This document shows positions 1 to 54,540 of a stretch of DNA of 60,000 bases, piece after piece. Every line of letters begins with the position of its first letter. Within the stretch, counting starts at the first letter, position 1. The position numbers were made by a program, and so were the translations under genes. The notes beneath the pieces were generated by a model. It had not been told where the DNA came from, did not search any database, and saw nothing but the letters and a program-made list of their open reading frames with translations. The stretch covers positions 3,040,001-3,100,000 of the forward strand of contig OX442316.1 in NCBI GenBank assembly GCA_949358305.1. The letters run 5' to 3'. The DNA comes from Strigamia acuminata. Its lineage: Eukaryota > Arthropoda > Chilopoda > Geophilomorpha > Linotaeniidae.

Positions 1-1422
1 TTGTACAGAATGCTGCAATCCGGGTTTTTATCACGCTTATTTCTAATAAATAAGCCTGAAACCGCAGGTGAATGCTATAAAAAGACTTATATCGCGGCCG
101 AAAATTATCTAGGGTTAATTTTATGAAGAATAAAAGACACAGTTTTATTATTTCAAATGCACACTTTTTATTTATCAATTATACAATAAAAAACACTATT
201 AAAATACGAGAATATTGAGAATAAAAGCGACAAGTCGCGAAATAATGAGTGAAAGAACAATGGTAAGTCTCGTAACGAGTGTTACGAGACAAAAGCGTCA
301 AAATGGCGCTTTACAACTCAAGTTGTTGGGAAGACGGTTGCCTTCCTCGTAACTCACGAACGATGGTCCTTGGACGATGGGTCTCGTGAGCTCTTCTGCT
401 CGACGTACGACGGCTCGTAGGCGGTGGTTCACGCGGGCAGGCGTCCGGCTGGCGTTCGATGGCGGTGGCAAGTGTTCGCGCACTTGCGACGATGATGGTT
501 CACGTCACTCGGGAACTTCTACTTCTGTAGCTGAAATTAGCGGCGGCTAATTTAAGCTGGATTGCTGGCTTTGTAGGTTGGTGCACAAAGATAGCAGGCG
601 AAACTGGAATTCACACGGTCCTCTGTCAATACTTTTCTTTGGGAGCAAAAGCAGTGATGTTGAGGTTTGTGTGTATTATTTCAGAGTCCCGATTGAAGCT
701 AGGGCGCGAGCCCGGCACGCTTCAATATTGCGCAGATAATCTGCGCAATTAGCTAAAACTGGTGCAACAAAGGATTATTGCACCATAATGCCAATATTGC
801 ACCATAACTGCCAATTGCCGTTTTCACCCCAGACAACCTGAGGTGATATGGTGCCTAGGGAAGATTCCTTCCCTCGGTCACATGATCTGACTTGGCGTGT
901 GCCAAGTCAAATTAATTAGGAAATAATTAATATTTTACTTCCTAAGTGGTGAAACAATTCGAGATCACCACAAGAATAATAATAAGACTTACGACGCACA
1001 ATTTAGCTTATCTCGCGTAGGTTATTATTTATTGGTAATGTGTTAGGTTTAATGTTATATAATTGAGTAGAAACTTGAATATGGTTTAATTGGATCATCA
1101 TTGCATACATCTTCTTACATCGAGTAGCAACATCATAGGTGAAACAAAAGAAGTGGTGGCGCCAAAAAACAATTGCGCATCACCACGTGACATCTCAAAA
1201 AACTAACTAGCCTCAGTCGAGGTACATATCAAATACCGGTACACATTAATACAAATCATCACAACATTTATCTCATAATGGTCAGATAATACGATAATAT
1301 TATCTACCAAAGGTAGAATCGTCACAACTTTGCAAATATTTATTGTTATTCAATATGACGTAATCGTAAACTCTGCCATTAGATTTGATTCAATTATTAA
1401 ATGGAATGATTACGGTAAATAC

Positions 1423-2329
1423 CTTTTGTAAACTAAATTTACTTCTTACTACTTCGTCTGCGTTTGACGTTTTTGCTCCTTGAGATCCACCTGGAATAGT
1501 TGACAGATACTAAAAATTTAACGAGTTTTAAAGTTTGCAATTTGCTTTTGGCAGTATATAGTCAATATACTTACGACAAGTGTGCTTGGTTGACATAATT
1601 CCGGTCGATTAAACCACATTTTGAATTTGCCCAACATGTTTCGCCCCGAAACGTTTTCTAGAAAACATCAAATGATTCTGTAGTACAAGTTTGTTGCAGT
1701 TAACAGTACTTTGTATATCATAATTTACCAACTGTTATCACACTACAGGTTCCCCACATGGACAATTCATTCCTTACTGTAACTTTTGGTTTGTTTGTTG
1801 CTTTCTGCATTAGAACACTGCTTTTTTATAATTAAGTTGTGAAAATAAATGAAGTTTTTCTTACCGAGATAAATTCAGTTTTGTTTACTGCAGAAAAATC
1901 AATATTCCACAATGCAGACAAGTTGACATTTTCATTCCCAACTAACCCGAACAAAGTATTCGCGCACAGGCGTAGTTCTTCTTCTGAGATGTTTTTCCAT
2001 GCGTGTCGTACGTATGGGTTTTCAGTCGTGCATATTTTCAATGCTGGGAATGAAATCTCGATTTCGTCTTTCGTGTACGCGTCAGTAGCGATGGGTTTAG
2101 AAAAAAAATGCTTGATTTTCTGCCCGGTTTGATAGCAACAAATTGCGAGGCAGCTTGTTAAAAGTAGACACCAAACAAACTTGATTTTAGCGTTTTTTGT
2201 AGGATCAATTAACGTTTGTAATTCAGGAAATGATCCCTCGAACATCCAGAGACGTGGCATTTGTTGTTGTACTGTTTTCCGGATTTTATACTTAATCGCA
2301 GCATTCCTTCTATTCATTGCAATCCTCAT
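1423..2329 (-). CDS. 5' part of a second DEG/ENaC gene (partial, runs off left edge)
   Basis: Exons 2329-1865, 1804-1729, 1657-1575 and 1509-1423 encode 237 residues: the N-terminal tail, TM1, the FPALKIC motif and the first extracellular exons. They match the first four exons of the gene starting at 15678, offset by 13349 bases. I found only two differences in the coding exons, both silent (TTC/TTT for Phe, AAC/AAT for Asn). Introns are 58-71 bases. The last exon ends in phase 0 at a GT donor (1422-1421), so the gene should continue left of the window, probably with the same Cys-rich and TM2 exons. Its upstream region carries a minisatellite that the other copy lacks. Confidence 0.8.
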
Positions 2330-2443
2330 TGTGCAAATGCTAGAAATTTGAAATGTCTTGGTTAATAACGCCCAAAAGCTTCTGTTTGTTTGACGTTACT
2401 TGGGAGTTTATTTGTGTGTGAGACTCGTCAATGGAATAAATAA

Positions 2444-6066: not shown

Positions 6067-9000
6067 TTATGGTTTTGGTTTTTGCTGCCACTCAAAAATC
6101 TTTTTTTCCATAATTCTTGCTGTACTCAATATTGACAGACCTAGTGATAAACTTAAAATGTTTCCGATGTCGCATATGAATGAGATAATGTCGTATTCAA
6201 GCCTGTCAATAAACATTTGAATTTTGCTCGTTTCAATGTAATGCCCCATTAAATTTATGTTTGGATTAGTGTTGAGTGTAGGGTAAGCCAAGCTCGAGTA
6301 CTTGGATTCTTTGCACGGAATATGACATTGGCATTCATCTTTTACATTTGTGTTGAGAAATATCTTTTTGTAGATAGAATCAGTTGTTTTCGCCGAGTGA
6401 GATGTTTTGCACATGGGATGCTGCAGTTGATCAATGTACGGTAAACTGGAGAGAGAAAATTAGCCACAGTCAATGTACAAGCTGGTTTAGGAACTTTCAT
6501 ATTTTAGCTTTGAGTGTAGATATGCATACAAATATATACGGTCCAGCCATGTTATAACGAATCACAATGGACCCAAATAATCGATTTATTATAACGAAAG
6601 TTATAACACAATTTTTTAACATGGGGTCCTATGAATCACTAACCAACCAAGCCATTTTTAACTATTCTTTATAACAAGAAATTTGTCATATCTCAGTTCG
6701 TTACAACGAGGTTTGACCGTAATACTCAATGATATGTAAGTAACTTACTTACTATATCATTGGTAATACTATACCGGCATGTTATTTTTTCATTCATTTT
6801 TTTGCGGTAACATTGTCCTTTGCAAATATAGAAATCGTTTGCCGGCATACATTTTCGGATCGGTGTATTTATGCGATCAAACTAAAAAGAATTTAAAAAA
6901 AAAAGAATTTTTAAGTTAATTTGTAGGAGTAATAAATACACAATAGTGGCTTTTAAAAAGTAGTGTTTTAAGTGTTTTTGTAGACTGAACCCTGTGGACT
7001 GGACCCCGTGGACTGGACCCTGTGGACTGGATGCATTCTCCCCCCCCCTTTACACGGTACTGCTTGTGGTACTGGGAATGGCATCACCATGCTGAAGCAG
7101 AGTATGGTAATCGTAGATACAACTCCTTGCCAAAAAAATGGCAAATCCTTATTTTAGAAACTTTTAATATTTGAAATTTCTCAGAAACTATTTCTCACAA
7201 GTAAAAATGGTTTTAGGAGGATTTAAAGGAATGTTAGAGCTATCATTTCGTTGAAAGTTTTATGGAAAAAAATGAATAGTTAAGAGAAAAAAATTAAAAA
7301 CTCCAAAAAGTGACAATTTACAATATTTCTCATAACTTGTAAACAGAATGAGATAAAATTAAAAACTAAACAGATTTGAGACCGTCTATATCCCAGAAAA
7401 CTTTTCTAAATTGGATGTATGGGTCTCCAAAGCCCTCAAAAAAAGGCGTAATGGAGCTATGTAAAGGGGTTGACAACAACTATTTTTCGAAAAATTGTGG
7501 CAAGCACAACTGTTGACGAATCAAAATGAAAATTTAGCATTGAAGCATTATTGTGTCGTACTTATAACATGTTATAGTTATGACTTGATTCGTCAACAGT
7601 TGTGCTGGCCACAATTTTTCGAAAAATAGTTGTTGTCAACCCCTTTACATAGCTCCATTACGCCTTTTTTTGAGGGCTTTGGAGACCCATACATCCAATT
7701 TAGAAAAGTTTCCTGGGATATAGACGGTCTCAAATCTGTTTAGTTTTTAATTTTATCTCATTCTGTTTACAAGTTATGAGAAATATTGTAAATTGTCACT
7801 TTTTGGAGTTTTTAATTTTTTTCTCTTTAACTACCGTATTTTACCGAATAAGAGTCGCCCTTGAATTGTAGTCGCCCTCGAATACGAGCCGCGACTAAGA
7901 GAGGCGACTTGAAATAAGAACTGCCCTCGAATAGTAGCCGCGGCTTATGTTACGTTCAATGAACGTAACATTGACATTGGCCGCTATTTGAAGTAAAAGC
8001 CGCCCCCGATTTGGAGCCGAGGCTCAAAGTGCCCGTTTTGAATAAGAGCCGCGGCTCTTATTTGGTAAAATACGGTATTCATTTTTTTCCATAAAACTTT
8101 TAACGAAATGATAGCTCTAACAATCCTTTAAATCCTCCTAAAACCATTTTTACTTGTGAGAAATAGTTTCTGAGAAATTTCAAATATTAAAAGTTTCAAA
8201 AATAGGGATACGCCATTTTTTGGCAAGGAGTTGTGTTTCTCACTTTTATCATACGATAGCTGACAAATGTTACATATCCTCTTTCCGTAGGTAGTATCTC
8301 CTTTGAAGTTAAATCCAAATCATGGTCGTCTCGAGTAGTTGTGAAAAACTTTGAGAATAAATGAAATTAATATGAAATAAAATTTCTGATTAAAGTGCTC
8401 TTTTACCTCATAGAAATGGCCACATAAAATGAGTGGAGCATTGTAGTACGAAGCCAAAAACATTGTGGCTAGACCATTGAATGGTACGTCATCTTTAGAA
8501 AGTCAAAACATTTTAATCAGATAATTGACAAATACAGAAATTGCTAGACACACCAATTAAGAATTGTGTACACATTCCACTTGTTGTATTTATTTTAGCC
8601 TTCGAATACTTTACCTGCAAAAAGATTACATTTATAATACAGTCATTATAATGAACCACACAACATTTATAATACAGTCAAACCGCGATATAACGAATTT
8701 TTGAAGGGAAACTTCTTTGGGTGCTAGAGATCGAAGTGATTCTGATACTGAATGTCACAAAAAGCAATACGGGAATAACTATTGACAATGTGTGTGCGTA
8801 GAAGTGTGCATGGTGGTGTGAATGTTAACCTGCCCAGTAGTGTGCGCAGTATCACATTTTTTGGGACATTACCATCCAAACCGTAAAGAACTGATGATAA
8901 AACAAACAAATGCGCACAGAAATAAATATAAAAAATTAAATTATAAAATTACAAATTTTATGTTTGATTTTAATTTTAAAGTTTAGTACTCATAAGCAGT

Positions 9001-12000
9001 TTCTTACGTAAGAAACCAGTCTGCCCACAGAAGTTTTGCCTACAGAAAAACTGGTACTCACAAATTTTATTCCAGTCTTGGAATGTCTGTGAGATATGTT
9101 CTGTGACATAAAAAATTAACTTTCTGGCATGTCGAGGCAACGGAAAGCTGATCTTCGTTTCCAGGCACAGAAAGTGTGGCACAGAAAGTAGCGATCGGTC
9201 TTGACAATTTGTGATCGGTCGTAATTTTTTTTAATCGGTTTCAAATATGGCAGCAATCAGTTCTGCCAACAAATGCAAACAACTGTATATTCTATTTATA
9301 CAAATAGATCATCAGTTTAGAAATAAAATTAAAAATTAAAAACAAGCTAGCAATTCTATTCATCCCAAGTCTGAAAGTAGCTGTAAAATCTTTTATTGCC
9401 ATCCATCTTGTTTATTTTTGTTTGGCCATTCACCATTTCTTTTCTCTTTCATAAGGCTGTGAGTACCATAAAAAGTGACAGACTGGCACATGTTCGGATA
9501 GGCTTTTCTGTCAAGTCTATACACACAGAAAAGTCTGTCGGCATACACTTCTGTTAGCAGATGATCTTATGAGTACTAAGCTTTAGACATGATTTTTTAA
9601 GATTTGAAGTTATGCTTCTATTGTGTGGTCGGATGCACTTATTTTTTTGTTATAATGGATACTTAAAAACACCGTAATAAAAAATTTTGACATAATGAAC
9701 TTTTATTATAACAAATCGATTTTTTTGGATTTCTTGCAATTCGTTATAACGAGACTCGACTGTATGACTATCCCATTACCAAACCCTGTGAGATTTCAGT
9801 TTCTGAAGTGTAAGACTTTTCCCATAGTTCTTCTATTGTGAGCTTTTCATTTTTTAGATCTAATAGACTCAATAGATGAATAGGACAATCAGTTTGACTG
9901 AGATTGTTTTCCTCAACATATATCTCCTCTAACGCCAAATCACCCACTACACAAGCTGTTATGTTCGGAAAGCTTACATTAGCTTCATCCAAGATTGCAA
10001 TGTTAATTCGTATGGGATATGCAATGTAAGTCATAAATTTGAAATAGATGATAACCGAAAATAGAGCGGTGCAACCGAGATAAACAACATTGAGCAATAT
10101 GTTTTGAATGTGGCTGTGAATTGGCTCGCTTTTTAGCAGGACAGATGAGAAATGGCTTTTCTTCTTTTGGAGGTAATGGCACACTTTGAGCTGAATTTTT
10201 CTATCTTTTGATGATGTTGCATTATGTTTTTGATAATTGATGATTAATGTTATCAAATCCAAAACAGCAGGTATTGACATTCCAAGGTAAAGACCAATAT
10301 TTCCAGCTGCATCAATGAGTAGATCGAGAAATCCATAAGCAAATCTTTCTTCAATAACATGAATGACGTTTGATGCTGCTTCACTTTGGCGTTCTACCAA
10401 TGGGGCATCTGATGTAGTAACTGTGTAGAATTTTAACTCTTCGTCTATTTGAGTGCACATTCTGCTACACGAGCAATTTAATTCTGTATTTATTCTAAGT
10501 AGTTTCTGAGAAATGTCCAGGTACAGCATCTCTGTTTCAAATGAACTATTGCACAAGTCGCCTGCTTTTCCACTCATAAATGGCAATCTGTAGTTATGAA
10601 TAAATGAAAAAGATTTTACCATGTATGGAAATAAATTGGTGGAATTTTCAAAAAGGTTTAAATTTATTCCCCTGAAAAGTAACTTTACACTCTAAAGATG
10701 TAAATTTACTCCCCTTTAGTAGCGTTATATCTTGATCTGTGGAAAAAATAATAATGTTTTAAGAGGAACACTATTTTTAATTTGCTGTACTTAAAGCCAC
10801 CATTTTCCTTTGTGCATGAGATCTTTTAGAAATTTATTTTAATTTTTGCCCACACTCAGATTTGAAACCAGTTCCCTTTATTTTGTAGGCCCAGCATCCG
10901 TTCCAGAATTAAGTAACTGATATCACATGATATAGGTAATTCATGCGCACATAACCACATGTTCAGTGGGTTTTACCACTGATGGCGCCTCATAATATAT
11001 AGCCTCATTGTATTCTGGGATGACACCAGGTAAAAACATGCTTATAATATTCGAAAAGCAATGCATGAAACATGATTGCTGTCATCCAATCAGCGCACAG
11101 AACAACGAATCAATAGGAAATAACACACGGATAAGTTTCCACGTTATTTTTGAGGATTTACGGTATCGACAATGTAACATCCAACCGCCGCAATGTTATA
11201 ACACGTCGAAAAAACGTACTGTACATAGCGGCATCGCATGAGATTACATATCTCGTATGTGATCCAATCAGCGATCAGTGTCATTAATCAGTGATAAATA
11301 ATACACGCGATATTCGTACACGCGATAGTACACGTCGCATGTAACGAAACGAATCCTGTTGCACGACACCTATATTTGTACACGTGACGTAGCGTGTACG
11401 AATTACGGCACAATTCGTTCCCGCGAAGTGAGATAGTATTCCTATACGCGACATATATATATCCCTTATAATATTTAAGCTTTGTATATTTTATAATAAA
11501 ACGCTTGTAATTATTCAACTGTACTTCTTGTTTTGTGTGTCCATATTTCCTACAGTAATCCGTGATTCATGCTTATATCTTACTTATTTAATATTGCTTT
11601 GTATCTACAAGTATAAGTCAGTAATTGCGTTCAAAAACTCTAAAACTCCTCGTTTCTGTCGTTTCGTGTCGATACGTGCGACGTTATTAATAGGAATGGT
11701 GTCAAACGTATCCACACGAAACAACAGAAACGAGGCGTTTTAGAGTTTTTGAATGCCCCAGTCCAGCTTGAAGCTCATCTGCAGAATGAGTATTTTCGGC
11801 TGGATCCACCAGGTAATGGATTTAGCCGAAAACATTCATTCTGCAGGTGAGCTTCAAGCTGGACTGGAATTTTTTTTATGTCCAAAGTGATCTCCCACCT
11901 GCAAGGTTGTTGACTGTAAAAATTTTCTAGGCATTTCTTGTGGCATTGGTTAAAATCCTTTTCGTCAATGCATGGATTAGACGAGGTATTCAAAAATATG

Positions 12001-15000
12001 AACTGAAAATTTATAAATGCATACAAAAATATGAAGACTTTGCGACGATTGTAAAACCGTATTAGGTTATAATCTGTTAATACATGGTGCTGTTAATAAA
12101 AAGCGTGTAGCTCAAATGAATCACAAGAATTATAATTAATTCTTTAGTACGTAAGTTATAAGTAAATATATTTTATTTACTAAGTTGCTCAGCATTTATT
12201 ATTAACTACAGTCAAAGCTGCGTAGCCCGGACATAGCACCGACCGGACAGCTGTGTGGACCGGACATTTTAGAGGTCCAGATTTGGTCCTAACCTATTCC
12301 CAGCAATACTAAATCCCCTCTTCCATCCGGACAGCCTTTTAGTCCGGACAACTTTCTGAGACCCGTCCTATGTCCGGGCTACGCAGCTTTGACTGTATAA
12401 TCGAATCAATATCATAATAATAACTACTAAATTACCGTATATCTTCCAATAGCGCCCCAGTGCGCTATTTGCCAAATTTTATTTTATCCCGCGCGCAATT
12501 GGAGGCCCGCGCGGTGTTAGAGGCCGCGGGTTATTTATACGTTCAGAAAACCCGGCATTGGCCAATTGGCCGATGCTGGGTTTTTTGAACATATTTGAAC
12601 GAAAAACAGCAAAAAAGTGGCACAAATGAAACGTTTTTTATACGTTTCGATAATTTTCGGCCGAAACGTATGCAAAACGTTTCGCCCCCGCGAGTTGTTG
12701 GAGGTCCGCGCTCTATTGACACCGCGGACTTTTCCTCCGCGCGTTGTTAGAGGTCCGCGGGCAAATGGAGACCCGCGGACAAATGGAAGATATACGGTAT
12801 ACTTACTTGATAAAAAGTACCAATTGGGTTCTTTTGGACCTAGTCTACTGCAAGGTCCGCACTAGCTAATCCCAATGTGACCTGTGAATCCATGGATTCT
12901 GATGTCCGATTGGCTACTCCTAATCTCTTTTGTATTCAAAAGCGATATAAACTCTCGATTTTCACCGGAGCTTCGCTTTTTGTTTGTTTGATCTATTCAT
13001 TAAGCCCTGACAGCTGACAGATTCTCTGTTGCTGTCAATACACCGCCTATAGACAGACTGATGCGGGAAGATAAATTCCGGTTCTTGATCACGCGATCAA
13101 ACCAACCATTATGGCTCTAAGGCGGATGGAGACCTTTCCGAATTCTTGCGCATTCATTGCCATGTAGCCAAGATTGGCCATGTAATGTTGTTGTGACAAT
13201 GCCGCGAAGCCAGCCCTATTTCTCGGCCCGCCCGGACACTCAACCAGTTGATGCTGCCCATTTACACGTGTTAGAACACCCAATACATGTACAGAAATAA
13301 ATCTATTCATGTGATATCGTCGTAAGTCTTATTATTATTCTGCACTGAATTGTACAGAATGCTGCAATCCGGGTTTTTATCACGCTTATTTCTAATAAAT
13401 AAGCCTGAAACCGCAGGTGAATGCTATAAAAAGACTTATATCGCGGCCGAAAATTATCTAGGGTTAATTTTATGAAGAATAAAAGACACAGTTTTATTAT
13501 TTCAAATGCACACTTTTTATTTATCAATTATACAATAAAAAACACTATTAAAATACGAGAATATTGAGAATAAAAGCGACAAGTCGCGAAATAATGAGTG
13601 AAAGAACAATGGTAAGTCTCGTAACGAGTGTTACGAGACAAAAGCGTCAAAATGGCGCTTTACAACTCAAGTTGTTGGGAAGACGGTTGCCTTCCTCGTA
13701 ACTCACGAACGATGGTCCTTGGACGATGGGTCTCGTGAGCTCTTCTGCTCGACGTACGACGGCTCGTAGGCGGTGGTTCACGCGGGCAGGCGTCCGGCTG
13801 GCGTTCGATGGCGGTGGCAAGTGTTCGCGCACTTGCGACGATGATGGTTCACGTCACTCGGGAACTTCTACTTCTGTAGCTGAAATTAGCGGCGGCTAAT
13901 TTAAGCTGGATTGCTGGCTTTGTAGGTTGGTGCACAAAGATAGCAGGCGAAACTGGAATTCACACGGTCCTCTGTCAATACTTTTCTTTGGGAGCAAAAG
14001 CAGTGATGTTGAGGTTTGTGTGTATTATTTCAGAGTCCCGATTGAAGCTAGGGCGCGAGCCCGGCACGCTTCAATATTGCGCAGATAATCTGCGCAATTA
14101 GCTAAAACTGGTGCAACAAAGGATTATTGCACCATAATGCCAATATTGCACCATAACTGCCAATTGCCGTTTTCACCCCAGACAACCTGAGGTGATATGG
14201 TGCCTAGGGAAGATTCCTTCCCTCGGTCACATGATCTGACTTGGCGTGTGCCAAGTCAAATTAATTAGGAAATAATTAATATTTTACTTCCTAAGTGGTG
14301 AAACAATTCGAGATCACCACAAGAATAATAATAAGACTTACGACGCACAATTTAGCTTATCTCGCGTAGGTTATTATTTATTGGTAATGTGTTAGGTTTA
14401 ATGTTATATAATTGAGTAGAAACTTGAATATGGTTTAATTGGATCATCATTGCATACATCTTCTTACATCGAGTAGCAACATCATAGGTGAAACAAAAGA
14501 AGTGGTGGCGCCAAAAAACAATTGCGCATCACCACGTGACATCTCAAAAAACTAACTAGCCTCAGTCGAGGTACATATCAAATACCGGTACACATTAATA
14601 CAAATCATCACAACATTTATCTCATAATGGTCAGATAATACGATAATATTATCTACCAAAGGTAGAATCGTCACAACTTTGCAAATATTTATTGTTATTC
14701 AATATGACGTAATCGTAAACTCTGCCATTAGATTTGATTCAATTATTAAATGGAATGATTACGGTAAATACCTTTTGTAAACTAAATTTACTTCTTACTA
14801 CTTCGTCTGCATTTGACGTTTTTGCTCCTTGAGATCCACCTGGAATAGTTGACAGATACTAAAAATTTAACGAGTTTTAAAGTTTGCAATTTGCTTTTGG
14901 CAGTATATAGTCAATATACTTACGACAAGTGTGCTTGGTTGACATAATTCCGGTCGATTAAACCACATTTTGAATTTGCCCAACATGTTTCGCCCCGAAA

Positions 15001-15678
15001 CGTTTTCTAGAAAACATCAAATGATTCTGTAGTACAAGTTTGTTGCAGTTAACAGTACTTTGTATATCATAATTTACCAACTGTTATCACACTACAGGTT
15101 CCCCACATGGACAATTCATTCCTTACTGTAACTTTTGGTTTGTTTGTTGCTTTCTGCATTAGAACACTGCTTTTTTATAATTAAGTTGTGAAAATAAATG
15201 AAGTTTTTCTTACCGAGATAAATTCAGTTTTGTTTACTGCAGAAAAATCAATATTCCACAATGCAGACAAGTTGACATTTTCATTCCCAACTAACCCAAA
15301 CAAAGTATTCGCGCACAGGCGTAGTTCTTCTTCTGAGATGTTTTTCCATGCGTGTCGTACGTATGGGTTTTCAGTCGTGCATATTTTCAATGCTGGGAAT
15401 GAAATCTCGATTTCGTCTTTCGTGTACGCGTCAGTAGCGATGGGTTTAGAAAAAAAATGCTTGATTTTCTGCCCGGTTTGATAGCAACAAATTGCGAGGC
15501 AGCTTGTTAAAAGTAGACACCAAACAAACTTGATTTTAGCGTTTTTTGTAGGATCAATTAACGTTTGTAATTCAGGAAATGATCCCTCGAACATCCAGAG
15601 ACGTGGCATTTGTTGTTGTACTGTTTTCCGGATTTTATACTTAATCGCAGCATTCCTTCTATTCATTGCAATCCTCAT
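6067..15678 (-). CDS. Fused double DEG/ENaC (pickpocket-like) channel subunit, 11 exons
   Basis: Exons in transcript order: 15678-15214, 15153-15078, 15006-14924, 14858-14772, 12002-11899, 10587-9780, 8614-8554, 8492-8407, 8348-8244, 6881-6775, 6445-6067. They total 2361 nt, 786 residues. Every junction has GT-AG and matching phase. Half 1: TM1 at about 49-67, FPALKIC after it, a Cys-rich exon with C..C spacing, TM2 at about 359-389 with the filter triplet GMS. A linker of about 47 residues follows without a stop. Half 2: TM1 at about 437-460, FPNITAC, a second Cys-rich exon (FDRINTPIRKC...), TM2 near 747-770 with GLS. DEG/ENaC subunits are normally single trimeric sodium-channel subunits of about 450-600 residues with two TMs; this one would have four. 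Neither half has the canonical N-terminal His-Gly. The second half has no Met before its TM1, so it cannot start alone. A TTTATT at 5837-5842 may be the poly(A) signal. Splicing is inferred, not observed. Confidence 0.85.
6539..6719. mobile_element. Short TIR element, pogo/Tigger-like ends
   Basis: Ends CGGTCCAGCCATGTTATAAC and GTTACAACGAGGTTTGACCG are imperfect inverted repeats, flanked by TA on both sides (6537-6538, 6720-6721). It sits in the 329-base intron before the last degenerin exon. No coding capacity. Confidence 0.7.
7119..8235. mobile_element. Large fold-back element in degenerin intron 9
   Basis: Two long arms (start ACAACTCCTTGCC, end its inverted copy) run from 7119 to about 7530 and from about 7570 to 8235 around a short centre near 7510-7590. 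The right arm is interrupted by a separate element (7834-8075). The outer right edge is 8 bases from the donor of exon 8348-8244. Confidence 0.85.
7834..8075. mobile_element. Nested MITE inside the fold-back arm
   Basis: Terminal inverted repeats begin CCGTATTTTACCGAATAAGA. TA is present at 7832-7833 and 8076-8077. The intact left arm reads straight across this site with a single TA, which gives an empty-site comparison. The interior is rich in CGCCC/GAGCCGCGG blocks. Confidence 0.85.
8675..9762. mobile_element. Non-autonomous pogo/Tigger-like element, 1.09 kb
   Basis: Left end CAGTCAAACCGCGATATAAC and right end GTTATAACGAGACTCGACTG are inverted repeats flanked by TA (8673-8674, 9763-9764). 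Removing it would leave degenerin intron 6 at about 75 bases, like the other small introns of this gene. No transposase frame. Confidence 0.8.
11063..11125. repeat. Dispersed repeat copy (related to 40711-40765)
   Basis: Shares a block beginning TGATTGCTGTCATCCAATCA and continuing through GCGCACAGAACA with the MITE at 40643-40816. It lies in degenerin intron 5 within a palindrome-rich stretch (10900-11250) that may be a larger diverged element. Confidence 0.6.
11627..11756. mobile_element. Short hairpin-forming MITE
   Basis: Inverted arms start GCGTTCAAAAACTCTAAAAC and end with the near-exact reverse complement at 11756, about 50 bases each. It is in degenerin intron 5. Confidence 0.7.
11758..11867. 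mobile_element. Palindrome of transposon fragments
   Basis: Two inverted copies of a sequence containing CATTCTGCAGGTGAGCTTCA meet near 11818. The same sequence occurs at 51456-51522, inside a transposon-like open frame. The palindrome starts about 32 bases downstream of the donor of the first Cys-rich exon (11899). Confidence 0.75.
12209..12395. mobile_element. MITE with CAGTCAAAGCTGCGTAGCCC termini
   Basis: Ends are inverted repeats of about 27 bases flanked by TA (12207-12208, 12396-12397), as in Tc1/mariner/pogo-type insertions. No open frame. Confidence 0.85.
12435..12797. mobile_element. GC-rich MITE with CCGTATATCTTCC termini
   Basis: Inverted termini flanked by TA (12433-12434, 12798-12799). 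The interior repeats GGAGGCCCGCG / GAGGTCCGCGG blocks. It resembles in design the nested element at 7834-8075 (CCGTAT ends, GC-rich core). Confidence 0.8.
13318..14347. mobile_element. 1.03-kb TIR element in degenerin intron 4
   Basis: A 24-base perfect inverted repeat starting CGTCGTAAGTCTTATTATTA (13318-13341) is matched at 14324-14347. The truncated copy at 1-998 is the same element in the left duplicate. No clear target duplication or transposase seen. Confidence 0.7.
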
Positions 15679-16107
15679 TGTGCAAATGCAAGAAATTTGA
15701 AATGTCTTGTTTAAAAACGTCCAAAAGCTTCTGTTTGTTTGATGTTACTTGGGAGTTTCTTTGCGTGTGTTGAGACACGTCAATGGAATAAATAATCTGA
15801 AAATTATATACTTGGCAGTGCACTTAATTGATGGTTTCATCCAGTTTTCAACCAATTACTGTATTTTCAAATTAAATAATAAAAAGATGTATGCAATATT
15901 GATCAGAATGTTTTATTTATAATTATTATTTCTTAAACCAAATGAATTTTTAATTTGTTGACTTTTTAGAGACAACGATTTTTGTGGAAGCAAACCAGTT
16001 GAAATTATTCTTTTAACTGTTAGAAAATATAGAAATTAAAAAATATATAGAAAATATATATTTTTTACTTAGTAACGGTTGGTTAGATAACGAAACAATA
16101 AAGAATT
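13350..16107. repeat. Right copy of the long direct duplication
   Basis: Direct counterpart of 1-3035. It covers the intron 4 transposon, exons 1-4 and the upstream region of the fused degenerin gene. It ends near the shared AAAGAAT at about 16107, after which a GTAC-rich sequence begins. Confidence 0.9.
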
Positions 16108-17207: not shown

Positions 17208-19620
17208 TCAGTTTGTTTTTTTCTCCTTCAGATGTATTGGTAATTCATTTTCACTGTTGATTAAATCATAACTCAATCCTGTGATGATATCACTGCATTT
17301 GCTTTGGATGGCCACAACATCAGAATAGTTAACTTTACTCCTCCAAGCAAAAGCAGCCGCTTTAGAGTCCCTTTTGGTTGAATATGGCCCACCACTGGGC
17401 TCATTATGTTGCAAATGAGTGTGGCTTTTTAAATATCTCAGCACATTCCCATGAATATTCAACTGTAAAAATTTAAATAACTGTTTGACTTTTTCCTCCG
17501 GATAAAGCGAAACATCCTCATACCGAAGTAGGAGAATTCTGTTTGGATATTTCTGATTGATCAAGTTCATTGTGGCCAAGTCATGCCTCATAGCTGAACA
17601 AACCATGTCAGGATCTATGCAGGATTTAGTGTTTTGGCACCAATCAAGCTTCAAGCGAGAACTCAGGATTCCTCGTGGATCCCGGACTAAATAAATAATT
17701 TTCAAAGCCGGATACTGGTCAAATAGTTGCATAATGGGCTCCAGTGATATTCTGGTGACCTTCATCACTTGGAATGGAAATTCATTACACATAGCTTTCA
17801 CAAAGTTTGCATCAAAGCACAGTTTGGGCCACAAGCGGCAACTGGTCCACAGCCTGGTGTTGTGTTGCAGCAGGAATTGGTTGTCCACTTCTTTCACCCA
17901 TTTTAAGTAGTAGTCATTTTGAGGAGTGAAATTACAGCTGAATAAATCTGATAGTAGTCCAACAGCTTTCTTTTGCATGGTCTCATTGATGACATCACTG
18001 CCGCTGACTGAATGAAGCGGCTCAAAATGGTAGAAGGTTCCTGGATGTTGGTTGAGGATGTCTCCGACAAATGTCGATCCGCTTCGCCAATAAGTTAACA
18101 GCAGAACTTGTTTCTTCTTTAGGTTTAGTGGTGGCAATGAGCTTAGTCCACCAGATTTGCTTACATATTGGGTTAAGGAGTTGATGCCGAAGAGTTCTAT
18201 TTGTATTCGAAGCCGGGCTTTGTTTACGGCGTATTTCAGTGGATTGGCGAGGAATGATTGGACATTGGTGTTGACTGGAACAACTCCTGATATGGTGTAG
18301 GATGCTCTGGGTGGAAATTTTAGGGCTGAGTAGTTCCTGACTTTGGATTGGCTGCTGATTATTGAGGTTTTTTTAATTCTGGGTATGTCCACAATTGGTG
18401 CAGCAATGGGTATAGAGCTCACCATAAACTTTTTTGTGGACTTGTTTTGATTTTGCTCAAGATGAATCACCTTGATGAAAGAAAAGGAAATATTGTTTAG
18501 TATACAGGAATTGTAAGCTGCAGCCAGCTGTGAATGCATGATTTAATGTTTTGGTTCCAGTTTGTAAATTTCTTTTTTTTTTACTTCCTGATTATAATGC
18601 ATGCAGTGTTTGTTTTTGCAATTTGTATACAAACAAAGAAAAAGTGCAAACTGACTGCAAATTTTCACGGTTAATGAAAGTCAGAGGCCAAGGTCTTGGT
18701 TAACGCTAAAGCGGCTTTTGCTGATGATTTGTTAAACTTTGTAAAAATTTGTAAAAATTTGTAAAACTTTGTACAAATTTGTAAAACTTTGTACAAATTT
18801 GTAAAACTTTGTACAAATTTGTAAAACTTTGTACAAATTTGTAAAACTTTGTACAAATTTGTAAAACTTTGTACAAATTTGTAAAACTTTGTACAAATTT
18901 GTAAAACTTTGTAAAACTTTGTACAAATTTGTAAATATTTGTAAAACTTTGTTCAAATTTGTAAACATTTATAAAAATTCCTAAAAATTCCTAAAACTTT
19001 CTGAAACTTTGTACAAATTTGTACAAATTTGTAAAAATTGTAAAAATTTATGATTTTGATCTAAAATCTAGTTAGCGAAAGCGACAATTAGCTAAATAAG
19101 GCTATAATTTTGTTTAACATGTTCTTATCTTGCAAACCAGCAACCTAAGGAAGTAACCCAGCCTGCAATGCAGTAATTTCAATGCAAAATGCAATGGTGA
19201 CATCTGACATTCCAGATCCAAAAGTGTTTTGGACAAACAACTATTATTCCAACGGTAACCGAGCGTAGATAATTGCATATACGGTATTACCAACTGTCTG
19301 AGTTTGGACACAAGAAGAATGAATATGCACAACAGTTAACTCCTACGTGCAAGAGCAACCAAGCGAAAGCCGAAGTAAACAGCCGATGAATGGTTACCAC
19401 CTACGCTCTATAAAGTCATCATCAGAGCATAGATGATGACCATCAGTGGACTCCTATTTGTAATAAATGAAAATAAATGCAATGAAAATATTTTTATTTA
19501 TACCTGGGTGTCATAGGCATCCAGAGTTGAAGTTCCTGTGAAATTCTTTGAGGCATAGATGACCAGACATAAAATAATGACAAAAGAAAATGCAAAAAAC
19601 AATTTTCTCAACCGAAACAT
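17208..19620 (-). CDS. Golgi carbohydrate sulfotransferase (CHST1/3/5-like), two exons
   Basis: Transfers sulfate from PAPS to a glycan in the Golgi lumen (family knowledge). Exon 1 is 19620-19504 (39 codons) and starts MFRLRKLFFAF, giving a basic tail and a signal anchor at about residues 7-24, typical of type II Golgi enzymes. Its CAG|GTATAA donor is phase 0. Exon 2 is 18470-17208, after an acceptor ending CATCAAG. The product is 459 residues. The 5'-phosphosulfate loop is TYWRSGSTFVGD (Arg, Ser, Gly, Ser, Thr at about 168-172) and the 3'-phosphate motif is LVRDPRGILSSRL (about 300-312). An in-frame Met at 18539 would give a form without the anchor, but that segment looks intronic. The acceptor CAG near 19676 suggests a 5' UTR exon. 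A TTTATT at 17163-17168 may be the poly(A) signal. Acceptor sugar cannot be told. Confidence 0.9.
18727..19044. repeat. 20-bp tandem repeat in the sulfotransferase intron
   Basis: About 13-15 units of aaatttgtaaaactttgtac, each containing the palindrome TTTGTACAAA. Open frames across it are repeat artefacts. It lies in the single intron, about 250 bases from the exon 2 acceptor. Confidence 0.95.
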
Positions 19621-44108: not shown

Positions 44109-46224
44109 TTTTCGGGATCACGTTGGGTTTGATGAAGGAAGCGGACAATCAGTTGCGCACCTGCCTCCCACCTGAGTGGTCGCCATCTCCCGCCAGACCG
44201 GCGCCGCTTCGCACGCGTGCACTCCTTCAATGGCAGAGACAACACCACCAGCTGACAAGCTGGCCAGGTGAGAAAAGGTAAAAGGACCCATCTCATTGGC
44301 CGTGCAGCATTTTTTCCCCACCATCATTTATTTTTTTTTTTATCGGACAAGATGAAAATAAACACAAAATTGCGATTACGTATCCGGTTCTGGTGGCCTC
44401 TCTGGCGCCAAACTCAATGACTCGCCGCAAGGGCGGATGCAAAGAGAGAAAGGGGATTTTTAGACCGTTTTAGACGATTTTAGACCGTTTAAGCCTTCAT
44501 TTTTACATTAAAAATTTGATTGCGGGATTTTAAAATTTGGGTTTTTCATTTTGTGGTTGGGAATTGGAAACACTAAGTACTGAAATGTGGAAAATAAAGT
44601 TTTTATTTGTTTTATTTTGTTGGGTTGTGGAAGATTTGGATTTAAATGGATTTAAAATTTTAAATGGGTTAAAATTTTTGTTAATTTTAATTAAATTTGA
44701 AGGTTTATAAGCGGGGTTTTTGTTTTAGGGTTATTAGTCCGCCTTTTAGAGCGACCCGGCTAGTAACGCCATCTATGTGTATGGAAAGTAAATGAATGTG
44801 GGCTACAAGCTGCGACATGCTCGATGTTTAATTTTTGATTTGATGCAAGCATTAGCTGGCATTTATAAAACCTGGATTGTTGTTTGTCTCGTAAGTAATT
44901 TTGGGATTTTTATTATACATTTATTGCTTGATTTTATCCTGTATTTTGGTTTTTTTTTTTACAGAAAATAAATTCCAAAATAATTTAGAATTTTTTCATG
45001 GAGTGTGAGTATTATTTTATATAAATAAAAAGTATGATTTTTGACTAATTCTATATTTTTATTTACATATGTAGACCTGTCCCGACTGAAATATATTGCT
45101 TGAAAAGTTTATTGAAGATTAAGATATCCAGGAAAACAAACAGAAAACAATTATTCCAGTCAATAAACTTCAATTGATTACAAATATAATTTTTATTTTT
45201 AATCTTCAAAAGGCATGGAGCTTCGAGAAATGCAACAGAACAACCAATACGTCATAGCTGTAAATACAGCAAACCGAACCTATTTGTAACATTCGCGTGT
45301 AATCCCGGCGTTAAACAGAATATTTACCCAAATCAAGCGGCCATAGACAGACTCGATCTCAACTCAAACGTGCAGAATTAATAGACGACTTTATAAATCG
45401 TCTCGTTTTTGGTTTTGTTGGTGCTTTCGTGTATGTAATCGAGTTTCAGAACCCGCACCCGCACACTTTAATTAGTTTGAAACCGGAGGACAAACTTCAC
45501 TCGAGTTATATTAATTTTGGTTGTAATGGATGTCAACTCTGTGCTCTCGCTAAACCTGAGAAAATCCTCGAGTGTCCTCGACTTGTCTAAATTGTTTGTT
45601 TTATTAGCAGTGTTGTATCGAACGAAGTTCACGTTCACCATGTTTGATGATGAAAACGTTGCAAAAATGTTAGTTTTAATGTTTAGATGACGTTTTCATC
45701 ATCAAAACATTCATTTCTAATCACTTTTTACAACAAAAACAGCCATGAAAGCGATGAAAACGACCGCTTTACTATCTGAAATCTGAAATCCACAAAATGT
45801 AACAAAACATTTCAATTTCTAAAATAAAATCTGAAAAATGAACGTGAACTTTTGATTCAACTTCATGAACTTGAACTTAGTTCACTTTGAAAAAAATTTT
45901 AGTGAACGCTAACGCAAACACGGTCATGAACGTGAACTTGAACGCATTCACAATTTAGTGAACGAGATACAACACTATTTACTAGTTACCACCTAATAAT
46001 TCGATTTACTAATCAGGAAACCTTGAAATTCCCCCCATCTGGTCCCTTTCCTGATATATTTCACATAGACTGCCATCAAAACATCTCAATTACAACGAAA
46101 AACTTTCTACACTTCCTCGTTATCATCTACAATTTACTCCCAGCCATTGCATGCCAACAGACAATTATAAGTATAATATTGACACACAGACACAATAAAC
46201 CAAACTCAATTCTTTTCTTCCCAG
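43001..46224. other. Upstream region of the Methuselah-like gene
   Basis: Two GC-rich patches (43020-43240 and 44130-44290) may be promoters or non-coding first exons, but no coding exon could be joined by phase. It holds a (TTTA)n tract (44073-44112), GGCGCC at 43069, 43586 and 44404, and a TIR element at 45609-45976. The missing N-terminal exon of the receptor should lie here. Confidence 0.45.
45609..45976. mobile_element. TIR element with AGTGTTGTATC termini
   Basis: Ends AGTGTTGTATCGAACGAAG and the inverted GAACGAGATACAACACT; the interior repeats GTTCACGTTCA / GAACGTGAACTT blocks. No transposase frame. No clear target duplication. Confidence 0.7.
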
Positions 46225-49200
46225 CTTTCTTGGACAGTGAACATGAAATGTGGCAACATCACTCTCCACCGGCGCGAATACACTCTCCGAAGAGACACTC
46301 TGGTCACAATCTACTCCCAAACCACCTACAACCCAACCAATTACACAATTTTACCTTCCGGATACGCGGAGTTGTGCTTCGACTACAAAAAATCCTTCCT
46401 GCAATGCCAAAAATGGCGACTAGACCCCGGCGAATACTTCGTCAACTCGTCCCGCAGTTTGATCTACAAAGCCGCGAATTCCAGCTACGAAATAGGAAAC
46501 TACCAACTAAACTCCGATAATTCCAGCAATGTGTGCGTGCCGGACAAACTACTGCCGATCGGTCAAATAGAATGGATTTTTATATCCGCGTGGACGTCAT
46601 CGATATTCGCTTTACTCATAGCGCTGTATTTGAACGTTCCGTGCAAGAGGGCGACCAAGCGTAGATATGACTTCCGACCGATGTATTGCCACATGATTTC
46701 GTTTGTGTTTAGTTATGTGTTCCAGATACTTTTCCAGTTGACTTATTATGCGAGTTGGGGTCGGGTGTGGCAGATATTTGTGGAGTATGGAGCGACTTTT
46801 ACGGATTGTTCGACTTTTTGTTGGCTGAGTGTTGTGGGGTTCGATACGTATTTGGCTTTTCATCCGCGGAAGTTGAAGGCGGATTTGACTTGTTCGAGTA
46901 GAGAGTTTTGCGCGCGGTCGCTGTATGCGTGGGGTGTGCCGTTCGTTTTGGTGACTTTGGCGGTTGTTGTTGAGCGGTTGGCGGTTGTTGGGGGGTATCC
47001 GCATTTTGGGATGTCGTTGCAGGGATTGCAGGCGAATGTTTTGAATAATGTGTTGGTGTTTGGCTCGCAGGTGTTGACTTTGGTGGTGCAGTTTGGGTTT
47101 TGTATTGCGACTTTGGTTAATATTCGACGGGGGTTGGCGGTGGTTTCTTCGCGGACGATCGTTCAGAAGAGGAAACTGTAAGTGATTGTGAGGTTAATGT
47201 TGGATTTTTGTTTGTGAAAATTGAGTTTTTAGACGAAGAAGTTTTTTTTAGGCTGAAAAGTTTAATTTTTAGGCTGTAAAGTTTAATTTTTAGGCTAAAA
47301 AGTTTAATTTTTAGGCTGAAAAGTTTAGTTTTTAGGCTGAAAAGTTTAGTTTTTAGGCTGAAAAGTTTAGTTTTTAGGCTGAAAAGTTTAGTTTTTAGGC
47401 TGAAAAGTTTAGTTTTTAGGCTGAAAAGTTTAGTTTTTAGGCTGAAAAGTTTAGTTTTTAGGCTGAAAAGTTTAGTTTTTAGGCTGAAAAGTTTAGTTTT
47501 TAGGCTGAAAAGTTTATTTTTACATGCAAAAGTTCATTCTCACATGCAAATCTTCATTCTTACATGCAAAAGTTCATTTTTACATCCAAAAGTTCATTTT
47601 TACATGCAAAAGTTCATTTTTACATGCAAAAGTTCATTTTTACATGCAAAAGTTCATTTTTACATGCAAAAGTTCATTTTTACATGCAAAAGTTCATTTT
47701 TACATGCAAAAGTTCATTTTTACATGCAAAAGTTCATTTTTACATGCAAAAGTTCATTTTTACATGCAAAAGTTCATTGTTTACATGTAAAAGTTCATTC
47801 TTACATGCAAAAGTTGATTTTACATGCAAAAGTTTATTTTTACACGCAAAAGTTCATTTTTACATGCAAATGTTCATTTTTACATGCAAAAGTTCATTTT
47901 TACATGCAAAAGTTCATTTTTACATGCAAAAGTTCATTTTTACATGCAAAAGTTCATTTTTACATCCAAAAGTTCATTTTTACATGCAAAAGTTCATTTT
48001 TACATGCAAAAGTTCATTGTTTACATGTAAAAGTTCATTTTTACATGCAAAAGTTCATTTTACATGCAAAAGTTCATTTTTACATGCAAAAGTTCATTTT
48101 TACATGCAAAAGTTCATTTTTACATGCAAAAGTTCATTTTTACACGCAAAAGTTCATTGTTTACATGCAAAAGTTCATTTTTACATGCAAAAGTTCATTG
48201 TTTACATGTAAAAGTTCATTTTTACATGCAAAAGTTCATTTTACATGCAAAAGTTCATTTTTACACGCAAAAGTTCATTTTTACATGCAAAAGTTTATTT
48301 TACATGCAAAAGTTCATTTTTACACGCAAAGGTTCATTGTTTACATGCAAAAGTTCATTTTTAAATGCAAAAGTTCATTTTTACATGCAAAAGTTCATTT
48401 TTACATGCAAAAGTTCATTTTTACATGCAAAAGTTCATTTTTACACGCAAAAGTTCATTGTTTACATGCAAAAGTTCATTTTTACATGCAAAAGTTCATT
48501 GTTTACATGTAAAAGTTCATTTTTACATGCAAAAGTTCATTTTACATGCAAAAGTTCATTTTTACACGCAAAAGTTCATTTTTACATGCAAAAGTTTATT
48601 TTACATGCAAAAGTTCATTTTTACACGCAAAGGTTCATTGTTTACATGCAAAAGTTCATTTTTAAATGCAAAAGTTCATTTTTACATGCAAAAGTTTATT
48701 TTTACATTGTGGTGACTCGGTAGTCATCAGAGTGAAACTAAAAATAAGAATATGTCACGTGCATAATTTTACCGTCCATTTTAATTTTTGAACTTTCCCC
48801 AATTTTCTTTAATAATTCTACTAATTTTTATTTTACTTATCTTCATTAAATTTTGCGCATAGTTACACTATACTTCATCTTTTTGTTTTGCCCCACCCCT
48901 GACCACAGTTGATATGGCTTGTCAATCATGTGATCAGAGGTGACTTCTGGGCTACACAACTTTACAAGATCACTTATGTCTTAATTGTCGACCAAAGACT
49001 AGTCTCCTTTAGACATTAAGTTAGATCGTCACTCTTCTACTATGTGCAACACAGAACCTTGTTTAACACCAAGTCGGCTGAGGTGGATTTCATCACTGAT
49101 TTAAGCCTCTGTCCTTTCCTTGCGATTTTCATCTAACTTATAAGCTAATTGATTCGTTCCATTGCCAACTATTTTAGCCATGCTCAGTGAGTATCCTCCA

Positions 49201-54090: not shown

Positions 54091-54540
54091 ATATTTCACT
54101 AACGTAAAATATGTAAAAAAAAAAAAAAAAAAAAAAAATTACTAAAACACACAAAATATGTCCAATTTAATTTATTATTGGTACTGAAAAACATCGGAAA
54201 CGCCTCACTTCAATACACACAACAACAACCTGAAAGAAATATGCTCACTACGCATTTACTGCAGTAAAGCAAACGGGCAGCAATACAACACCAAACCAAA
54301 TTAAACAACCTTCCCAAATTATCAGAGCATGATGAGAAAGGTCCCGCTCTCACTGCCTTCAATGCTTCAACTCCCTTGAAAACATAACGCAAGTAACGCC
54401 CCGTGTCTAAATTGCAGTCACATGACATTTATTTACCTGTGCACTCGATACAGAACAGTTTACAGCTTGGTATGACAACTCCAGCTGCTGAAACGTAAAT
54501 GCTAAATCCACTCAACGCCAACATTTTCGTTCCAGGTGCC

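What the first reader, a model, noticed from the sequence alone, without database searches (positions are those of the whole stretch)
6067..15678. One gene encodes two full DEG/ENaC subunits fused head to tail
Exon 10587-9780 holds, in one uninterrupted frame, the end of ectodomain 1, TM2 with filter GMS, a 47-residue linker, then a second N-terminal region, TM1 and FPNITAC. Downstream exons complete a second ectodomain and TM2 with GLS. The second half has no Met before its TM1, so it cannot be a separate gene with this start. DEG/ENaC channels are trimers of two-TM subunits; a covalent tandem dimer would force new stoichiometry (for example two fused chains giving six subunit halves or an unused half).
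Basis: partly seen in the sequence, partly recalled or inferred. Interest (0 to 1): 0.92.

Follow-up and report, generated by a model that had tools for sequence, protein, structure and literature searches.

The report
Two-in-one sodium channel gene family
One exon of this animal gene joins, without a stop, the end of one DEG/ENaC ion-channel subunit to the start of a second, and at least 404 intact exons of this kind lie in the same genome (likely a centipede's), so a channel normally built from three separate pieces would here be built, at least in part, from pre-joined pairs.

Summary
An 11-exon minus-strand model (15678-6067), all ten introns GT-AG, gives 774 residues with four hydrophobic peaks; each half alone matches the DEG/ENaC profile PF00858. 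Six genome searches list at least 404 distinct stop-free exons with the same TM2-linker-TM1 junction; sampled members are as little as 18% identical to the window's. Of 150 second-half TM2 exons found separately, 109 lie within 5 kb downstream of a listed fusion exon, 11 on the wrong side. The window gene's halves share five intron phases, four at identical aligned positions: a six-exon subunit gene was likely duplicated in tandem and fused. Trees allow one fusion and reject two separate-origin groupings. Over 22 pairs, dN/dS in the fusion exon is 0.44-0.59, linker included, though the window's own pair is near 0.84. Nearest solved structures are centipede trimers. Not shown: transcription, sensory role, spread to other species, and how pre-joined pairs enter a trimer. 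The paper searches made listed no four-TM DEG/ENaC.

The parts
15214..15678 (-). exon 1: start codon, N terminus, TM1 of half 1 (about 15540-15484), FPALKIC
   Evidence: model; PF00858 match of half 1
15127..15166 (-). exon 2: 40-nt micro-exon, phase 0 in, phase 1 out
   Evidence: needed for the frame; conserved in the fourth tandem copy
14924..15006 (-). exon 3, ectodomain 1
   Evidence: 3 of 4 differences from the fourth copy fall at third positions of this frame
14772..14858 (-). exon 4, ectodomain 1
11899..12002 (-). exon 5, ectodomain 1 (NPCIDEKDFNQCHKKC)
9780..10587 (-). exon 6, the fusion exon: end of ectodomain 1, TM2 with GMS, linker, second TM1, FPNITAC
   Evidence: one open frame; one of at least 404 intact exons of this kind
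10275..10283 (-). selectivity-filter-like GMS of half 1
   Evidence: sequence
10101..10238 (-). linker between the hydrophobic peaks of TM2 and the second TM1, 46 residues, no Met, lysine-rich
10044..10100 (-). second TM1 (residues 423-441)
   Evidence: hydrophobic peak
9951..9971 (-). post-TM1 motif FPNITAC of half 2
   Evidence: sequence
8554..8614 (-). exon 7, ectodomain 2
8407..8492 (-). exon 8, ectodomain 2
8244..8348 (-). exon 9, ectodomain 2
6775..6881 (-). exon 10, ectodomain 2
6067..6445 (-). exon 11: end of ectodomain 2, TM2 of half 2 with GLS (6141-6133), stop codon
   Evidence: PF00858 match of half 2
6160..6162 (-). Asn744, in place of the glycine that is invariant in the aligned first halves (DxGG motif before the filter)
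   Evidence: position corresponds to Gly375 of PDPNaC1
1..2443 (-). 5' part of the next tandem copy of the same gene (99.5% identical to 13350-15795)

Best explanation
The gene joins two DEG/ENaC subunits into one predicted four-TM chain, and this chain likely supplies two neighbouring subunits of a three-subunit sensory cation channel, the third place being filled, I would predict, by a separate single-subunit DEG/ENaC. Shown by sequence: the fusion exon, the homology of both halves, the repeated intron pattern, the size of the family, dN/dS below 1 in the fusion exon of close pairs, and a consistent difference between halves at the pore mouth in the seven second halves read. Inferred: that the gene is transcribed and spliced as modelled; that both termini and the linker lie in the cytosol, as two TM helices per half require; that the two halves line one pore; that the third subunit comes from one of the conventional single-subunit genes also present in the genome; and that the family serves chemical, pH or temperature sensing. 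Rough odds: architecture as described 0.93, sensory role 0.6, two-plus-one assembly 0.4.
For: Fusion exon and full model. Each half matches PF00858 separately (6.3e-12 and 3e-13) and the whole at 2.5e-23. At least 404 distinct intact fusion exons. Second-half TM2 exons within 5 kb downstream of a listed fusion exon in 109 of 150 hits, against 11 of 150 on the wrong side. Same five intron phases (0,1,0,0,2) in both halves, four of five at the same alignment column. TM2 tree: five of six second halves form a 100/98 clade; holding all six together is not rejected (p 0.26), nor is one clade of first halves (p 0.34); grouping first with second halves by subfamily, as separate fusions would predict, is rejected in both cases tested (p 0.027 and 0.0004; groups named after the tree was seen). 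TM1 tree: one clade of second halves (p 0.53) and one of first halves (p 0.42) are not rejected. dN/dS over 22 disjoint close pairs, fusion exon only: half-1 part 0.56, linker 0.59, half-2 part 0.44; pooled over 345 overlapping pairs 0.55, 0.71, 0.45. The second glycine of the DxGG motif is invariant in 26 of 26 aligned first halves (there the motif may read DAAG) and present in 9 of 9 conventional TM2 exons, but Asn (5) or Ser (2) in 7 of 7 second halves read; the matching residue of centipede PDPNaC1, Gly375, is the narrower of its two reported closed-pore constrictions. Non-equivalent pore mouths fit two different positions in one hetero-trimer. Conventional-looking subunit genes exist beside the family (L002, L005, L007, L008). 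The nearest solved relatives are centipede sensory trimers.
Against: No transcript, protein or assembly data were available, and no other species could be searched with success. Nothing here tests stoichiometry; a dimer does not divide evenly into a trimer, and arrangements with two or three tandem chains fit the sequence as well. The pore-mouth difference would also be expected if each half formed its own pore. Between the window gene and its fourth copy dN/dS is near 0.84 (my arithmetic), so this subfamily is little constrained or diversifying. Of nine genes with several kb downstream in hand, the second-half TM2 exon was whole in five; in L046 its frame breaks just before the filter; in L057, L059 and L085 it was not found in the fetched 4.5 kb. 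For the L059 subfamily it was then read in another member; for the L085 subfamily, the largest list, it was not shown. Of 150 second-half exons 20 had no listed fusion exon within 20 kb. In the TM2 tree two first halves (L058, L063) fall in a group with conventional and second-half rows (81/77), and deep nodes of both trees are weak. The single-sequence fold of the fusion exon was useless (mean pLDDT 38.9). A sensory role rests on analogy.
Confidence: 0.62

Rival explanations
1. Three tandem chains build two linked trimers, one of first halves and one of second halves, a double-barrelled six-subunit complex.
For: The linker, 27-56 residues by my cut in 65 measured sequences, could span between neighbouring pores; both kinds of half keep a GxS filter where read whole but differ consistently at the pore mouth, as two specialised homotrimers would. 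PDPNaC1, a near relative, is a homotrimer.
Against: No known DEG/ENaC forms paired pores (recalled). Nothing in the sequence demands it.
Confidence: 0.22
2. Two tandem chains make one trimer and one of the four halves is left out of the pore.
For: It needs no partner gene; four halves are enough for three places.
Against: A regularly unused half should evolve more freely, but the half-1 and half-2 parts of the fusion exon show dN/dS of 0.56 and 0.44; this is weak evidence, since either half could be used in turn and only parts of each half were measured.
Confidence: 0.15
3. The chain is cut in the linker, or the second half is also made on its own by internal initiation, so that ordinary two-TM subunits assemble.
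For: The linkers are lysine and arginine rich (net positive in 64 of 65), which proteases could use; 29 of 65 linkers hold a Met.
Against: The spacing across the junction varies little (91-120 residues) and dN/dS of the linker is below 1; 36 of 65 linkers, the window's included, hold no Met; no NPGP skipping motif in the 65 measured exons.
Confidence: 0.13
4. Artefact: assembly error, pseudogene or chance joining of neighbouring genes.
For: The window gene sits in a recent tandem array with near-identical copies, where assembly is hard; some family members do carry stops (23 of 427 rows that span the query).
Against: At least 404 intact exons on 11 contigs, deep divergence, matching intron phases and dN/dS below 1. 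In conventional arrays of the same genome (L007, L008) TM2 ends in a stop and the next TM1 lies in a separate frame about 390 and 920 bases away.
Confidence: 0.02

Closest known systems
BRTNaC1, broad-range thermal receptor 1 of centipede (PDB 8ymr and others)
   Same: Best solved match of half 2 (1.4e-11) and second of the whole protein (2.8e-13): same ectodomain end, TM2 and filter region.
   Different: 431 residues, one subunit per chain, trimeric; the window protein has two such units in 774 residues.
PDPNaC1, proton-dissociation sodium channel of Scolopendra antenna (PDB 9jf7)
   Same: Best solved match of the whole protein (4.4e-16), through half 1; DxGG and GxS positions align.
   Different: 421 residues, two TM helices per subunit, homotrimer.
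Insect pickpocket and mite ENaC families
   Same: Arthropod DEG/ENaC families with shown or suggested chemosensory roles (passages of PMC7738191).
   Different: Fruit fly has 31 members (start of abstract of PMC12304301 in a listing). I saw no mention of fused subunits; I did not read the papers on the mite expansion.
Engineered concatemers of channels; K2P and two-pore channels
   Same: Subunits joined in tandem in one chain (recalled).
   Different: Concatemers are laboratory products; K2P and TPC are natural but build a four-fold pore, in which pairs divide evenly (recalled).

Membership tests
DEG/ENaC superfamily (PF00858), by homology of each half | Match to the ASC profile above the curated cut-off | tested here: met
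   whole 83.3 bits, half 1 45.7, half 2 50.1, cut-off 23.6
DEG/ENaC superfamily (PF00858), by homology of each half | Two TM helices around one large cysteine-rich ectodomain, per unit | tested here: met
   hydrophobic peaks at residues 47, 358, 423, 736; invariant cysteines in 26 aligned fusion exons. TM helices are predicted from hydropathy only.
DEG/ENaC superfamily (PF00858), by homology of each half | G-x-S filter in TM2 (motif recalled; the Gly-Ala-Ser tract is named in PMC12714832) | tested here: met
   GMS and GLS in the window gene; GxS in the 65 of 71 first halves that my motif search could measure, a search that itself asks for a similar pattern
DEG/ENaC superfamily (PF00858), by homology of each half | Cation channel, usually amiloride sensitive | not testable with these tools
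   no expression or recording possible
Conventional DEG/ENaC subunit | One subunit with two TM helices per polypeptide | tested here: not met
   two units and four hydrophobic peaks in one spliced frame; the junction itself in one unspliced exon
Conventional DEG/ENaC subunit | Assembly as a trimer of separate chains | not testable with these tools
   no structure of the assembly; single-exon fold failed

The most novel reading that the evidence does not exclude
A whole receptor superfamily, with over 400 intact fusion exons in one likely centipede genome, is built from natural covalent DEG/ENaC dimers: a trimeric channel fold that evolution has made to work from pairs, with two non-equivalent halves fixed in order and a third place open to a shared partner or to a second pore, and it is a main chemosensory repertoire of an arthropod line without insect-type odorant receptors.
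Probability: 0.4. Interest if true: 0.95.

Novelty: new variant of a known kind. Interest (0 to 1): 0.86.

Why it matters
DEG/ENaC channels are known as trimers of separate two-TM chains. A natural tandem dimer, kept over deep divergence and multiplied to hundreds of genes, would mean that a three-fold channel can be built from two-unit chains, and asks how: a partner subunit, an idle half, or paired pores. It fixes subunit order by genetics, so gating and selectivity of each position could be tested one at a time. It may also be a large, overlooked sensory receptor family: the Strigamia centipede genome paper reports 'sodium transport' among functions enriched in lineage-specific duplicates, and no insect olfactory receptor family (PMC4244043).

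Tried and rejected
My first ten-exon draft broke the frame; a 40-nt micro-exon at 15166-15127 restored it and is conserved in the fourth copy. Protein database searches for relatives elsewhere found nothing: fusion exon alone, none of 455 candidates at E 0.001; 26-sequence alignment, none of 2452 at E 0.01; the database may hold few animal proteins, so spread beyond this genome is untested. Single-sequence AlphaFold of the fusion exon gave mean pLDDT 38.9 and was not used. Independent fusions in each subfamily: rejected in the two groups tested. Mere head-to-tail neighbours: the conventional arrays L007 and L008 show stops and separate frames instead. Paper searches were seen as listings; of PMC7738191, PMC12714832, PMC12804983 and PMC4244043 I saw passages, and of the last also section 9. 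The library lacks most subscription papers, and a paper on mite chemoreceptor families that I tried by DOI is not held.

What the counts leave out: the 404 takes, for six queries, only rows at or above a subfamily identity threshold that I set after seeing the lists (47, 47, 44, 34, 33, 44%), spanning 80% of the query and without a stop; 466 rows were entered, 427 spanned enough, 404 had no stop. The L085 list was full at 139 rows, all above its threshold, and loci outside the six lists (such as L045, L050, L058, L063, L072, L082, L083, L086, L087, L092) were not counted, so it is a lower bound; some tandem copies are near identical. In one search, 71 of 73 stretches gave an open exon and 65 of those 71 could be measured by motif. 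The trees used 26 of the 38 fusion exons then in hand (A1; its 26 include the window's), plus six second halves and nine conventional TM2 exons, or eight first-half and eight conventional TM1 exons. In one search I added 30 fusion-exon places from outside the 404; direction was judged by the strand of the second-half exon, and the strand of the fusion exon was not checked in that script. Of the 14 Pfam hits fetched, most for their long frames, seven were fusion exons (L067-L073) and seven were not.
Full report
WHAT IS THERE. The minus strand of 15678-6067 encodes, in 11 exons, a predicted 774-residue protein. My first ten-exon draft broke the frame in the first ectodomain; a 40-nt micro-exon, 15166-15127, restores it, and it is conserved in a neighbouring copy. 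All ten introns then have a GT donor and an AG acceptor. The protein has four hydrophobic peaks, at residues 47, 358, 423 and 736. Exon 10587-9780 runs open from the end of the first ectodomain through TM2 (GMS), a 46-residue linker without Met, a second TM1 and FPNITAC. The last exon ends with TM2 (GLS) and a stop. Pfam ASC (PF00858) matches the whole at 2.5e-23, half 1 at 6.3e-12 and half 2 at 3e-13.

THE LOCAL ARRAY. Window 1-2443 is a 99.5% copy of 13350-15795. Along the chromosome, three copies of the gene, the window's included, lie about 13.35 kb apart with identical fusion exons, and an older fourth copy has eight of the ten draft exons, those within the DNA in hand, at 84-98% DNA identity. 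In exon 3, 3 of 4 differences from the fourth copy fall at third codon positions of the frame used in the final model.

THE FAMILY. A search of the window's own 237.5-Mb assembly with the fusion exon gave 143 matches. Five more queries, from other subfamilies, gave 137-147 matches each. Counting only rows of each query's own subfamily that span 80% of the query and have no stop, 404 distinct places on 11 contigs remain, with none shared between the six lists. This is a lower bound: one list was full, and loci outside the six lists were not counted. Of 73 stretches collected, 71 have an open fusion exon. In the 65 that my motif search could measure, the distance from the GxS filter to the FPxxxC motif after the second TM1 is 91-120 residues, the linker carries net positive charge in 64, 36 linkers have no Met, and no exon has an NPGP motif. 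Identity of 25 diverse members to the window's exon goes down to 18%.

THE SECOND HALF IS THERE TOO. A separate query, the last exon of one distant gene (L044), gave 150 matches. Of these, 81 lie within 3 kb, 109 within 5 kb and 118 within 10 kb downstream of a listed fusion exon; on the wrong side the numbers are 0, 11 and 47, as neighbours in arrays would give. Twenty had no listed fusion exon within 20 kb. Of nine genes with several kb downstream in hand, the second-half TM2 exon is whole in five (window, L044, L045, L061 in L098, L068 in L100); in L046 the frame breaks just before the filter and the filter lies in another frame, so that copy may be damaged or have an extra intron; in three (L057, L059, L085) it was not found in the fetched 4.5 kb, one of which (L059, in L102) holds a copia-type frame there. 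For the L059 subfamily it was then read in another member, L106. For the L057 subfamily two matches (C3:11279359, C1:23796759) lie 2.3 and 4.0 kb from listed fusion exons, by place only. For the L085 subfamily it remains unshown.

CONTRAST WITH ORDINARY GENES. The same genome has conventional-looking subunits. In tandem arrays at L007 and L008 the TM2 frame ends in a stop and the next TM1 lies in its own frame about 390 and 920 bases on. So the fusion exon is not just two neighbours in a row.

ORIGIN. The two halves align at 21% identity (6e-7). Their five introns have the same phases, 0,1,0,0,2; four sit in the same alignment column and one is two columns off. The simplest account is a tandem duplication of a six-exon subunit gene, followed by loss of the stop and of the DNA between the last exon of the first unit and the first exon of the second. 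In the TM2 tree (41 rows) five of six second halves form a clade with 100/98 support and the sixth is a long branch; two first halves (L058, L063) fall with conventional and second-half rows (81/77). In the TM1 tree (42 rows) seven of eight first halves group at 88/79, and the eighth (L057) is a long branch placed elsewhere. One clade of second halves and one of first halves are not rejected in either tree (p 0.26, 0.34, 0.53, 0.42), while grouping halves by subfamily is rejected in both cases tested on the TM2 tree (p 0.027, 0.0004). The groups were named after the tree was seen. This fits one fusion before the expansion; it does not prove one.

SELECTION AND THE PORE. Over 22 disjoint close pairs, dN/dS in the fusion exon is 0.56 for the half-1 part, 0.59 for the linker and 0.44 for the half-2 part; pooled over 345 overlapping pairs it is 0.55, 0.71 and 0.45. 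That is fast evolution with constraint, the linker too, without a significance test. The window gene against its fourth copy is near 0.84 (my arithmetic from the counts). The second glycine of the DxGG motif before the filter is invariant in 26 of 26 aligned first halves and present in 9 of 9 conventional TM2 exons (sequences); in second halves it is Asn in five and Ser in two of seven. By alignment it matches Gly375 of the centipede channel PDPNaC1, the narrower of the two reported closed-pore constrictions, next to Ser376 (proton block) and three before Gly378 (selectivity) (passages of PMC12714832). So the halves are not equivalent at the gate, in the genes read.

WHAT ANIMAL. The assembly carries no name. 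The mitochondrial COX1 reads through in the invertebrate code. The best solved relatives of both halves are BRTNaC1 and PDPNaC1 of centipedes. A centipede or other myriapod is likely, not shown.

HOW IT LIKELY WORKS. Two TM helices per half put both ends and the linker in the cytosol, where conventional termini lie, so the fusion needs no change of topology. DEG/ENaC pores take three subunits. The reading that I favour is that one tandem chain fills two neighbouring places with non-equivalent halves and a single-subunit protein fills the third, like a shared co-receptor. Paired trimers, an idle half, or cutting in the linker remain open. Large, fast-evolving tandem arrays resemble chemoreceptor families; related centipede channels sense heat and acid in the antenna; ENaCs are discussed as chemoreceptors of insects and mites; and the Strigamia paper lists sodium transport among functions enriched in lineage-specific duplicates, while the insect olfactory receptor family is absent there. 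These are analogies.

NOVELTY. The paper searches listed no four-TM or tandem DEG/ENaC, in a library that lacks most subscription journals. Automatic protein databases may hold double-ASC predictions; that was not tested. It is a new architecture of a known channel family, on an unusual scale.

Noticed in passing
window 17211-18542 (-): Open 444-residue frame matching sulfotransferase profiles (PF00685 1.8e-15, PF13469 3e-13), next to the channel gene.
   Followed up: partly
window 7133-8221: Two pairs of near-perfect inverted repeats (arms 243 nt at 99% and 146 nt at 96%) in the intron between exons 9 and 10, probably a foldback element.
   Followed up: no
window 46183-47178 (+) and 54499-55248 (+): Long open frames with several hydrophobic-looking stretches and no Pfam match at E 0.01.
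   Followed up: no
window 1-2443 and G000:C4:3.007-3.056 Mb: Recent tandem array: three copies about 13.35 kb apart with identical fusion exons and an older fourth copy.
   Followed up: yes
window 18.7, 32.6-35, 38.6-39.1, 47.2-48.7 and 53.5-54 kb: Long minisatellite arrays with units of about 10, 19-21, 35, 20-21 and 31 bases; some give long repetitive open frames that are unlikely to be genes.
   Followed up: no
L007, L008 (G000:C4:7.37 Mb): Separate tandem arrays of conventional-looking single-subunit DEG/ENaC genes.
   Followed up: partly
L102 (G000:C1:5941000-5945500): A long open copia-type retrotransposon frame lies downstream of a fusion exon, between it and a Pfam-matched exon at C1:5938190-5938519, which would make a long intron.
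   Followed up: no
L046 (G000:C8:14527000-14535000): The second-half TM2 exon of this fused gene is interrupted just before the filter; the filter lies in a separate frame downstream.
   Followed up: no
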